A DNA stretch of 64,000 bases, taken from NCBI GenBank assembly GCA_025462735.1, contig JAOAPC010000014.1:62001-126000 (forward strand), in the 5' to 3' direction. The stretch's first letter is position 1; each line of letters starts with the position of its first letter. This document shows positions 55,617 to 58,710 of this stretch, piece by piece. The DNA is from Acidobacteriaceae bacterium. GTDB taxonomy: Bacteria > Acidobacteriota > Terriglobia > Terriglobales > Acidobacteriaceae. Below the pieces are notes generated by a model. That model was not told where the DNA came from, searched no databases, and was given only the letters and a program-made list of their open reading frames with translations. Both the position numbers and the translations under genes were made by a program.

Positions 55617-55632
55617 GTTGCCCTGACAAAAG

Positions 55633-55825
55633 CCTTTGCCGCCACGATGTACCGCAGCTGGCATCACCGCGTGTGAGATTGTGGAGCTACGGGCGTCCTC
55701 GCCCGTAGCATTCCCGACCAATTTTGATCCGAAATCATCGCGACACAAACCTGTTCCCTGCCACGATGTAAACGTAGCGGCATCTCCACCGCCTTCCGGG
55801 ATTTGGAGCTACGGGCGCTCTCGCC
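55633..55825. pseudogene. Two degenerate copies of the mpg 3' end, each followed by an acgggcg hairpin
   Basis: gccacgatgtaccgcagctggcatcacc (55640) and gacacaaacctgttccctgccacgatgtaaacgtagcggcatctccaccgccttc (from 55742) match mpg 3' end at 56055-56109. Confidence 0.8.
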
Positions 55826-55871
55826 CACCATTTTCTTAGCTGACACCGAACTGCTCGCGCTTCCGCAAAAC

Positions 55872-56028
55872 GGGAAGGGCATGACTTCAGTCGTGCCGCA
55901 AAGGCACTACACGAATGACGGCTTTAGCCGCTGAGGGACTCTCTGCGTATTGAGGGAGGTTACCTCGGAGGCTAAAGCCATATCTTCTGGCGGAATCTAT
56001 CGGCACGAGTAAAACTCGTGCCCTTCCC
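55872..56028. repeat. Nested palindromic element
   Basis: Outer arms gggaagggcatgacttcagtcgtgccg / cggcacgagtaaaactcgtgcccttccc; inner ggctttagccgctgaggg / cctcggaggctaaagcc. Confidence 0.75.
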
Positions 56029-56048
56029 TTTGTATCGCGGTGCTTCAT

Positions 56049-56654
56049 TCATCCCGACACAAACTTGTTCTCTGCCACGATATAACGCAGCGGCATCTCC
56101 ACCGCCTTCTTGATCCCAATTCGCTTCGTAATCAAGACCTCGGGCGGAGGCGTGCCGTCATCAGCAATGTAGAGATCAGATCGTGGACTGGTCAGGTCTT
56201 TTCCGTTGTCGCGCTCGCGTATGATTCCGAAAGCCGCCGCCAACCTTCCCGGACCACGCGTCAATCGTCGCAAATCGTGGCTCTCATCAATACCACGTAG
56301 CTTAAACATGGCTTCCATACCCCGGACCGGTTCGACCGCGCGAAAGAGAATTCCTCCAGGCACTCCATCCGGAAGGCAAGAAACGTTCAAGCAGTAATGG
56401 TTGCCATAGATGAAGTACACGTACGCGTGTCCTGGTGGTCCGAACAGGACTGCGTTGCGCGACGTCTTTCCAATTGATGCATGCGCAGCTGGATCATCGG
56501 CGCCAAGATAAGCTTCGACCTCGACAATGCGTCCGGTCAGCAGTTGACGTCCCTGGCGCCGCACCAGGATTTTGCCCAGCAAGTCCGGCCCGACCAGCCG
56601 CGGATCGCGGTCGTAAAAATCTCGCGAAAGAACCCGAAGCGGACCCAGCTTCAT
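56049..56654 (-). CDS. mpg: 3-methyladenine DNA glycosylase (AAG/MPG type)
   Basis: DLLGKILVRRQGRQLLTGRIVEVEAYLGADDPAAHA...GPPGHAYVYFIYGNHYCLNV; internal ATG chosen. Confidence 0.93.
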   Translation of the reverse strand: MKLGPLRVLSRDFYDRDPRLVGPDLLGKILVRRQGRQLLTGRIVEVEAYLGADDPAAHASIGKTSRNAVLFGPPGHAYVYFIYGNHYCLNVSCLPDGVPGGILFRAVEPVRGMEAMFKLRGIDESHDLRRLTRGPGRLAAAFGIIRERDNGKDLTSPRSDLYIADDGTPPPEVLITKRIGIKKAVEMPLRYIVAENKFVSG

Positions 56655-56782
56655 CTGTTTAGGAGACGGACTCACGCTTCGATTATCGCCGCGAATGCTG
56701 GCCAGAGAAAACACGGCCTGAATCGCGTCTCGGATCCTGCTTCGTCTCTACGTGACATAATCAACATCGGAGATCACGAATT

Positions 56783-57436
56783 TTGAGCTGTGCGATTTGC
56801 AACAAACGCAAGGAAAAGCGCTTCTGTCCGGCAGTTCACGGACGCATCTGTCCGCAATGCTGCGGCGAGCAGCGCGAAGTGACGCTCGACTGCCCGAGTG
56901 AGTGCGTCTACCTTCAGCAGGCGCGCGAGCACGAGAAGCCGCGTCCGCTCGAGGAACTGGACCAGAGTGCGCTCTTCCCGAAGATTGAGATTGGCCAGCA
57001 ATTTCTCTACGAGCAGGAGCACCTGATCCTCGGCTTAAGCTACGCTCTGGCGAAAAGCGCACAGGCTGATCGCGGCATTCGCGACTCTGATTTGATTTCG
57101 GCCCTGTCGGCGCTTGCTCGGAACTACGAAACTCTGGCAGGATCGGGCCTGCATTACGAAACGCCAGTGACGAACTTATCGCACCAGGCAATCGCCTCCG
57201 AAGTTCAAAAGATGGTCAAGGAATATCGCGAGGCGGAGCAAAAGCACGTGGGCTATAGCCGATTGCGTGACTCCGATGTTTTTCGAGCGTTGGTCTTTCT
57301 GCTGCGCATGGCGTTCACCCGCACGTCAGGCCGGCCAAAGTCGCGTGCGTTCGTCGACTTTCTGTTCCGGCAATTTCCGGAACAGCACTCGGCAATTACC
57401 GCGGCGGATGAAGGCAGCCGCATCATCGTTCCTTGA
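56783..57436 (+). CDS. Conserved-looking Cys-rich N-terminal hypothetical protein
   Basis: 217 aa; N-terminal MSCAICNKRKEKRFCPAVHGRICPQCCGEQREVTLDCPSECVYL possible zinc-binding module. Confidence 0.8.
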   Translation: MSCAICNKRKEKRFCPAVHGRICPQCCGEQREVTLDCPSECVYLQQAREHEKPRPLEELDQSALFPKIEIGQQFLYEQEHLILGLSYALAKSAQADRGIRDSDLISALSALARNYETLAGSGLHYETPVTNLSHQAIASEVQKMVKEYREAEQKHVGYSRLRDSDVFRALVFLLRMAFTRTSGRPKSRAFVDFLFRQFPEQHSAITAADEGSRIIVP

Positions 57437-57468
57437 TCTTGTCGCCGAAGACGAAAGCAGCCGATCAG
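57367..57468 (+). repeat. Direct repeat copy A (3' end of the 217-aa gene and its downstream flank)
   Basis: ccggcaatttccggaaca...ccgatcag, matched by 58123-58225; 7 mismatches over the 70-nt coding part by eye. Confidence 0.88.
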
Positions 57469-57478
57469 TAATCGAACC

Positions 57479-58036
57479 ATGAGAGAAAACAATTTCGCTT
57501 TGCTAGTAAGTCTAGTTCTGGCGCTATCCTTGTGTGGTCATTCGGCAGACAAGGTAGCGCGAAATCCGCCGCCCGCAGCACAGGACCTAGCTTTGAAGGT
57601 TAGTCCTACAAAGCTGGTGTACAAAACAAGCGAAGCAATCGAGCTACATTTGACTCTCGAGAACAAGGGGCAGGCACAACAAATCGTACCTCGCCATCTG
57701 AAGCTGCGGACGAATATTAGGCTGCAAATCCTTGACCATCAGGGCGGGTCAGCGAAATGGTGCGGGCGAATAGCGGATGAGCTTGTGTTTCTCAAAAGCA
57801 ACTATAGAACTCTTTCTCCGGGCGAGTTTTTGAAAGGCCGGTTGACCATATCCTGTCAAAACGCCGAGGATCCAGGGCGGTCGTGGGGATACAAGATTTC
57901 TGTTCCGGGCAAGTACACAATTGAAGCGGCATATCAACTAACGTTGCCGAGAGAGAACTATGAAAAGGGTTTTCCGGGTGCTCGGGTCGTCAGTGGCCCG
58001 GTTTCGGCTGAACCAGTAACGATCGAATTACAGTAA
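57479..58036 (+). CDS. Secreted BsuPI-like beta-sandwich protein
   Basis: 185 aa, signal peptide-like N-terminus; LALKVSPTKLVYKTSEAIELHLTLENKGQAQQ...PGKYTIEAAYQL. Confidence 0.65.
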   Translation: MRENNFALLVSLVLALSLCGHSADKVARNPPPAAQDLALKVSPTKLVYKTSEAIELHLTLENKGQAQQIVPRHLKLRTNIRLQILDHQGGSAKWCGRIADELVFLKSNYRTLSPGEFLKGRLTISCQNAEDPGRSWGYKISVPGKYTIEAAYQLTLPRENYEKGFPGARVVSGPVSAEPVTIELQ

Positions 58037-58058
58037 CTCGGTGGTCGGAGCTGGCATG

Positions 58059-58114
58059 GCCCACCTTTGGAGCACCACAACTCCCGCAAGTAGAGATAGT
58101 TGGGAAAGGTGGGC
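58059..58114. repeat. gcccaccttt/aaaggtgggc inverted repeat
   Basis: Perfect 10-bp arms at 58059-58068 and 58105-58114. Confidence 0.8.
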
Positions 58115-58122
58115 TAGCCCGC

Positions 58123-58225
58123 CCGGCAATTTCCGGAACAACAGTCTGCAATTGCCGCGGCGGACGAAGGCAGCCGCATTATCGTTCCCTGACCTTTTAG
58201 TGAAACATTGAAGGCGGCCGATCAG
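58123..58225 (+). repeat. Direct repeat copy B; reads RQFPEQQSAIAAADEGSRIIVP-stop
   Basis: See copy A; 5 of 7 coding-part differences are synonymous. Confidence 0.88.
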
Positions 58226-58710
58226 CTTGCCACTAGTTTTTTCACTAGCTGTCCAGCCGGCAGCGCGTCTCGCAGTTCACGAATGGTCCGCTTGAATACC
58301 GGATGGCGTGCATCCGGAGCGATTTCCGCTAGCGGTTCCAATACAAAACGCCGCTCGTGCATCCGGGGATGCGGGATAGTAAGCGACGGCAGTTCTATCA
58401 CCGAGCTTCCGAACAGCAGAATATCGATATCAATTATGCGTGGGGCCTTTTGCTGTCGACGTTGCCGGCCCATGCCCTGTTCCAGATTCAGAATTGCGGC
58501 GATTAACTGCCGCGGCATTTTCTCCGTATCGAGCTTGACCGCGCAATTCAGGAACCAGGGCTGCGGACTGGTCTCGACGGGCTCCGTCTCATAAAACGAC
58601 GACACCGCAGCCACAGTCCCTAATTCGGCCAACTCCTCTATCGCTGCGTTAAGGTTCGCCGCCCGGTCGCCCACATTTGATCCCAGCGAAAGATAGACGA
58701 TTTTGTGCAT
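58222..58710 (-). CDS. folK: 2-amino-4-hydroxy-6-hydroxymethyldihydropteridine diphosphokinase
   Basis: VYLSLGSNVGDRAANLNAAIEEL; FLNCAVKLDTE; RIIDIDILLFG; IPHPRMHERRFVLEPLAEIAP. Confidence 0.96.
   Translation of the reverse strand: MHKIVYLSLGSNVGDRAANLNAAIEELAELGTVAAVSSFYETEPVETSPQPWFLNCAVKLDTEKMPRQLIAAILNLEQGMGRQRRQQKAPRIIDIDILLFGSSVIELPSLTIPHPRMHERRFVLEPLAEIAPDARHPVFKRTIRELRDALPAGQLVKKLVAS

What the first reader, a model, noticed from the sequence alone, without database searches (positions are those of the whole stretch)
57367..58225. A gene plus hairpin is bracketed by ~102-bp direct repeats copying the 3' end of the upstream gene
Seen: 57367-57468 and 58123-58225 align end to end. Both encode RQFPEQ(H/Q)SAI(T/A)AADEGSRIIVP-stop, and the match continues past the stop to ccgatcag. 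Between them lies a 185-aa secreted-protein gene and a gcccaccttt/aaaggtgggc hairpin. Of 7 coding differences, 5 are synonymous, so copy B appears to have diverged as coding sequence before being stranded. Inference: a module integrated at a gene 3' end, bringing a diverged replacement end, or arose by recombination between alleles.
Basis: partly seen in the sequence, partly recalled or inferred. Interest (0 to 1): 0.78.

Follow-up and report, generated by a model that had tools for sequence, protein, structure and literature searches.

The report
Imported gene displaced another gene's tail
In this soil acidobacterium a single foreign gene, probably a stray antidote to a rival's toxin, was inserted right behind a conserved gene, gave that gene a slightly different tail and left the old tail stranded behind it: a clear footprint of gene acquisition, but of a kind already known.

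Summary
57367-57468 and 58123-58225 are direct repeats (103 columns, 82.5%; 7 differences in the 70 coding nt). They copy the 3' end of the gene at 56783-57436, its spacer and the folK stop codon. A sister genome shows the empty site: in G001 the same gene and folK (88-89% aa identical) lie 42 bp apart with one copy and no insert. None of 80 relatives carries the inserted gene or a second tail.

The insert is foreign: GC3 is in the lowest 0.6% of sampled genes. Its only close relative (40% identity) lies 5 nt behind an Rhs core with an HExxH tip, where immunity genes sit, so it looks like an orphan immunity gene. Its hairpin ends in a dispersed REP-like repeat, which ends exactly where copy B begins.

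Best explanation: import of a related, about 10% diverged allele carrying this cargo, by one-sided or circular-intermediate recombination that displaced the native tail downstream. This is the topology proposed for Rhs C-terminal displacement and seen with partly degraded plasmids in E. coli. Integrase-type integration remains possible: six of 13 sampled tRNA genes here have displaced 3' ends behind small cargo modules. Genuine, moderately interesting, not a new kind.

The parts
56783..57436 (+). Conserved 217-aa gene with an N-terminal cysteine-rich motif (CAICNKRKEKRFCP...CPQCC); the gene whose 3' end is duplicated; no significant Pfam or NCBIfam match
   Evidence: homologues in 39 of 61 searched genomes
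57367..57468 (+). Copy A: functional 3' end of the 217-aa gene (70 nt) plus 32 nt of spacer, ending 1 nt past the position of the folK stop codon
57479..58036 (+). Inserted 185-aa secreted protein, probable orphan immunity protein or inhibitor (beta-sandwich-like)
   Evidence: rare; Rhs-linked homologue; atypical GC3; low-confidence model
58053..58123 (+). Palindromic hairpin whose 3' half (58105-58123, AAAGGTGGGCTAGCCCGCC) belongs to a dispersed REP-like family; it ends at the junction with copy B
58123..58225 (+). Copy B: displaced, truncated native 3' end of the 217-aa gene plus native spacer, contiguous with folK
58222..58710 (-). folK (HPPK), ancestral convergent neighbour of the 217-aa gene
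   Evidence: PF01288, E 1.6e-41; synteny

Best explanation
In this lineage a DNA segment from a related bacterium (about 10% diverged at this locus), carrying the 3' end of the same conserved gene, its spacer, one cargo gene (a probable orphan immunity protein) and a REP-like hairpin, was recombined into the chromosome. Homology acted on one side only. Either a circle made by joining the hairpin end to the truncated gene end crossed over once within the 102-bp homology, or a linear fragment recombined homologously inside the gene and was joined illegitimately at its hairpin end. The conserved gene stays intact with a donor or hybrid tail (copy A). The cargo follows it, and the recipient's old tail and spacer (copy B) are pushed downstream next to folK as a dead fragment. 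Shown: derived insertion, foreign composition of the cargo, displaced native end. Supported but not proven: allelic rather than in-situ divergence of the two tails. Inferred: the circular or one-sided mechanism and the immunity function.
For: Empty site in sister G001: gene and folK 42 bp apart, one tail, no insert. folK is the convergent neighbour in 63 of 80 non-redundant relatives, at 17-477 bp in all but two; no second tail and no insert gene in any. Cargo foreign by composition: GC3 51.6% against 62.8 +- 4.3, and phylogenetically sparse: one close relative in four searches of 61 to 399 genomes. Divergence between the tails (7/70) is less than half that to G001 (15/70 and 16/70); the model with B stranded recently beats B stranded throughout by 2.6-3.4 log units. 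Copy B begins exactly where the REP-like end stops, as expected of an arbitrary fragment end or circularisation joint. Precedents: circular-intermediate C-terminal displacement proposed for rhs (PMC2935791); 109-950 bp duplications of a gene end from single crossover of partly degraded plasmids in E. coli (PMC3240628); homology-facilitated illegitimate recombination proposed for orphan immunity arrays (PMC5361080).
Against: No donor genome with [gene]-[185-aa gene]-[hairpin] in single-copy form was found, so the intermediate is hypothetical. Today's longest identical run between the tails is only 18 nt, short for RecA-dependent crossover inside the repeat (the one-sided linear version avoids this). 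The same genome shows integrase-style displaced tRNA ends, so a site-specific event is a live alternative.
Confidence: 0.55

Rival explanations
1. Site-specific integration: a small element with an attP that mimics the gene's 3' end was integrated by a tyrosine recombinase acting in trans, or lost its own integrase afterwards (CIME-like, like e14 at icd). Copies A and B are attL and attR.
For: Anatomy fits: intact gene with replacement end proximal, native end distal. Six of 13 tRNA genes in 1.26 Mb of this genome have a displaced 3' fragment 1.1-4.1 kb downstream enclosing one or a few genes, mostly without an integrase; the tRNA-Val(GAC) case also includes flank and is 85% identical over 84 bp. 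The genome has several intact tyrosine recombinases.
Against: No integrase in the module or, by a crude motif scan, credibly near this gene in 80 relatives. Two relatives with other cargo in the same gap (L064, L098) lack any tail duplication. In 1.26 Mb this is the only such duplication found behind a long conserved protein gene.
Confidence: 0.27
2. In-situ event: foreign DNA was captured in a break with long staggered ends (or by template switching), duplicating 102 bp of one chromosome; the tails then diverged in place.
For: Needs only one step with two new junctions and no special donor. The spacer and synonymous divergence could be post-insertion age, since both are below the G001 divergence.
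Against: A tail that was noncoding for the whole time should show more amino-acid changes and indels: likelihood lower by 2.6-3.4 log units with spacer, about 1.5-1.9 without.
Confidence: 0.13
3. REP/RAYT-type event: a Y1 (HUH) transposase acting at the hairpin mobilised the adjacent gene, and the insertion ended at the REP end.
For: The hairpin's conserved end coincides with the right junction. The own genome has 8 matches to this 19-nt end (up to one mismatch) and 12 Y1 transposase matches, one about 600 bp from a REP copy. The 40 relatives searched have 0-2 matches each.
Against: Does not explain why the repeat is a gene tail plus spacer; only 19-24 nt are shared with the family and the left half of the hairpin differs from the usual copies.
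Confidence: 0.05

Closest known systems
Rhs C-terminal displacement (Jackson et al. 2009, PMC2935791) and orphan immunity arrays (Kirchberger et al. 2017, PMC5361080)
   Same: A new 3' end plus downstream gene is placed behind a conserved gene and the old end is shunted downstream; circular or one-sided homologous recombination is proposed; the cargo looks like an immunity gene.
   Different: The target is a conserved, non-polymorphic gene next to folK, not an rhs or effector gene; the two ends are alleles of one tail, not alternative toxin tips.
Single crossover of partly degraded, recircularised DNA, and homology-facilitated illegitimate recombination (Amarir-Bouhram et al. 2011, PMC3240628)
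   Same: Partial duplication of a gene end (109-950 bp there, about 102 bp here) flanking inserted DNA.
   Different: That is a laboratory plasmid system in which the plasmid carries a cloned segment of the recipient's own gene; here the event is natural and the homology is 10-17% diverged today.
Integrase elements that replace a gene 3' end (e14/phage 21 at icd, tRNA islands, CIMEs; from own knowledge)
   Same: Replacement 3' end keeps the target gene intact and the native end becomes the distal repeat.
   Different: No integrase, no recurrent use of the site, repeat more diverged than usual att cores.

Membership tests
Integrase-type integrative element (attL/attR at a gene 3' end) | Integrase gene in the element | tested here: not met
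   The one sizeable ORF between the repeats has no Pfam match; integrase matches in this genome lie on other contigs
Integrase-type integrative element (attL/attR at a gene 3' end) | Direct repeats of the target's 3' end with an empty site in relatives | tested here: met
Integrase-type integrative element (attL/attR at a gene 3' end) | Recurrent use of the same site by other elements | tested here: not met
   No second tail in 80 relatives; other cargo in the same gap (L064, L098) lacks tail repeats
Orphan immunity gene of a polymorphic (Rhs) toxin | Homologue directly downstream of a toxin tip | tested here: met
   G100: homologue (40% identity) starts 5 nt after the stop of an Rhs core (TIGR03696, E 1e-23) with a HELTH tip; a single instance
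Orphan immunity gene of a polymorphic (Rhs) toxin | No cognate toxin in the own genome | tested here: met
   The G100 protein matches G000 only over the Rhs core (residues 6-231), not the tip; the genome is 97% complete
Orphan immunity gene of a polymorphic (Rhs) toxin | Neutralises the toxin | not testable with these tools
   needs a co-expression assay
REP element of a RAYT system | Dispersed palindromic intergenic repeat in a genome with Y1 transposases | tested here: inconclusive
   19-nt end in 8 places, 12 Y1_Tnp matches, one REP copy about 600 bp from a Y1 gene, but the left half of this hairpin differs from other copies
Allelic recombination with displaced 3' end (Rhs-type displacement) | The two ends diverged as separate coding alleles | tested here: inconclusive
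   Log-likelihood difference 2.6-3.4 in favour with spacer, 1.5-1.9 without; no donor found

The most novel reading that the evidence does not exclude
This genome spreads small, integrase-less single-gene cassettes (here an immunity gene) that settle behind tRNA and protein genes by bringing a replacement 3' end, using integrases or hairpin nucleases in trans; the folK module is the protein-gene version of the tRNA modules seen elsewhere in the genome.
Probability: 0.1. Interest if true: 0.7.

Novelty: new member of a known kind. Interest (0 to 1): 0.4.

Why it matters
It is a readable single-event footprint, with empty site, displaced native tail and both junctions, of how one foreign defence-like gene can enter behind a conserved gene without breaking it. 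It suggests that end displacement, described for rhs loci, also happens at ordinary genes, and that stranded 3' ends can be used to find such acquisitions. It also points to a possible new Rhs toxin/immunity pair (HExxH tip plus secreted immunity protein).

Tried and rejected
Ancestral tandem duplication of the whole gene: no remnants, and relatives have one copy. Ordinary transposon target-site duplication: 102 bp is far longer than usual target duplications and no transposase lies inside. Known RNA element for the hairpin: no Rfam match at E up to 1. Rho-independent terminator: the scan finds none at the hairpin. Plasmid or viral origin of the cargo: no match in plasmids by protein search or in IMG/VR. 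Naming the cargo by family, sequence or structure: nothing significant in Pfam, NCBIfam or PDB sequences; the AlphaFold model is weak (pLDDT 57) and its PDB matches (GH3 enzymes, alpha-2-macroglobulin, CARDB domain) say little. Recurrence elsewhere in the genome: of five filtered hits in 1.26 Mb only the folK module involves a long conserved protein gene; the others involve ORFs of 62-260 aa in repeat pairs and were not examined one by one. Weak homologues of the cargo in other genomes show no Rhs motifs near them.

Full report
Observation. The two repeats are real and at the stated coordinates; a search of the 4.36-Mb genome finds just these two places. Copy A is the last 70 nt of a 217-aa gene (56783-57436) plus 32 nt of spacer. 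Copy B (58123-58225) is the same stretch lying directly against folK (58222-58710, minus strand; PF01288). The spacer part also matches (21 of 32 aligned bases, 0 of 5000 shuffles as good), and the match ends one base beyond the folK stop codon, so copy A contains a complete image of the gene end and the intergenic spacer but no folK. Copy B has a stop codon in frame three codons before RQFPEQ and cannot be read as a gene.

Empty site. The window belongs to an acidobacterium whose nearest relatives are Terriglobia/Acidobacteriales metagenome assemblies. The closest searched genome, G001 (record QHZX01000306.1; 88% aa identity in the 217-aa gene), has the gene and folK 42 bp apart, one tail and no insert. 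In the 80 non-redundant loci found in named genomes, folK is the convergent neighbour in 63, with gaps of 17-477 bp in all but two; none has a second tail or the 185-aa gene. Two relatives, L064 and L098, hold other cargo in the same gap (a protease-like gene; small ORFs), without tail duplication. The insertion is therefore derived in this lineage and the gap merely tolerates inserts.

Cargo. The 185-aa gene is foreign in composition: GC3 51.6% against 62.8 +- 4.3% for 326 sampled ORFs, lowest 0.6%. It is very rare: searches of 61, 399, 399 and 396 genomes (overlapping sets) found one close homologue, 40% identical over nearly the full length. That homologue (G100) starts 5 nt after the stop codon of an Rhs-core protein (TIGR03696, E 1e-23) whose tip carries HELTHLTLGPG, a possible HExxH metallopeptidase signature. 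This is where immunity genes of polymorphic toxins sit, so the inserted gene is best read as an orphan immunity or inhibitor protein. The own genome has an Rhs core but no match to that tip. This rests on one neighbourhood and is inference; weaker homologues elsewhere are not near Rhs motifs.

Hairpin. The hairpin after the gene folds well (z -2.7). Its last 19 nt, AAAGGTGGGCTAGCCCGCC, belong to a dispersed family: 8 matches in this genome, 0-2 in each of 40 relatives. The genome has 12 Y1-transposase matches, and one REP copy lies about 600 bp from one of them, so it is REP-like. Its end (58123) coincides to the base with the start of copy B.

Age and allelism. Copies A and B differ at 7 of 70 coding sites, against 15 and 16 to G001. 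A joint fit of synonymous, nonsynonymous and spacer differences favours recent stranding of B by 2.6-3.4 log units over stranding at the time of the split, and by 1.5-1.9 without the spacer. This fits two alleles that diverged in separate lineages and were then joined.

Mechanism. The topology (intact gene with a donor or hybrid end, cargo, truncated native end) follows from one crossover with a circle whose ends were joined at the hairpin, or from homologous recombination on one side and illegitimate joining on the other. Jackson et al. proposed circular intermediates for displacement of rhs ends (PMC2935791). Single crossovers of partly degraded plasmids in E. coli produced 109-950 bp duplications of a gene end (PMC3240628). 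One-sided illegitimate recombination was proposed for immunity arrays (PMC5361080). The main rival is integrase action. In 1.26 Mb of this genome, 6 of 13 tRNA genes have displaced 3' fragments downstream enclosing small cargo, so such elements exist here, one (tRNA-Val GAC) with an 84-bp, 85% identical repeat like the present one. But no integrase lies in this module, none was credibly seen near this gene in relatives, and no other long conserved protein gene in the sample shows it.

Verdict. A real, derived, foreign single-gene insertion with displacement of a gene end; mechanism probably one-sided or circular recombination with a relative's DNA. It is a new member of a known kind.

Noticed in passing
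G000 C11:134793-136126, C11:203073-206322, C11:362447-364689, C12:49189-50415, C12:62024-66129, C12:342137-344024 (own genome, outside the window): Six of 13 tRNA genes in the sampled 1.26 Mb have one or two direct copies of their 3' end 1.1-4.1 kb downstream, enclosing small cargo: metallo-beta-lactamase fold, alcohol dehydrogenase plus TetR-like, unknown ORFs, a type ISP restriction enzyme (PF18135), a phosphoesterase (PF04185). No intact integrase was seen in them; an integrase-like C-terminal remnant lies beside tRNA-Ala.
   Followed up: partly
L145 (G100 C28) 3-1660: Rhs core with a HELTH tip followed 5 nt later by a secreted beta-sandwich-like protein: a candidate toxin/immunity pair without a significant Pfam match for tip or neighbour.
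   Followed up: partly
G039 contigs C7, C27, C45, C52: Forty-five-nt matches to the tRNA-Val 3' half lie within a few kb of Rhs-core matches on the same contigs; Rhs cassettes may be associated with tRNA-end repeats there.
   Followed up: no
window 55625-56109: Diverged direct and inverted repeats (for example 55735-55796 and 56049-56109, 90%), the second copy covering the 3' end of the DNA glycosylase gene (56049-56714, minus strand): another small duplication of a gene end (61 nt coding), without cargo.
   Followed up: no
L064 3652-4965 and L098 3688-5208: Independent inserts in the same gene-folK gap of two relatives: a secreted protease-like ORF, and small ORFs including a secreted one.
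   Followed up: partly
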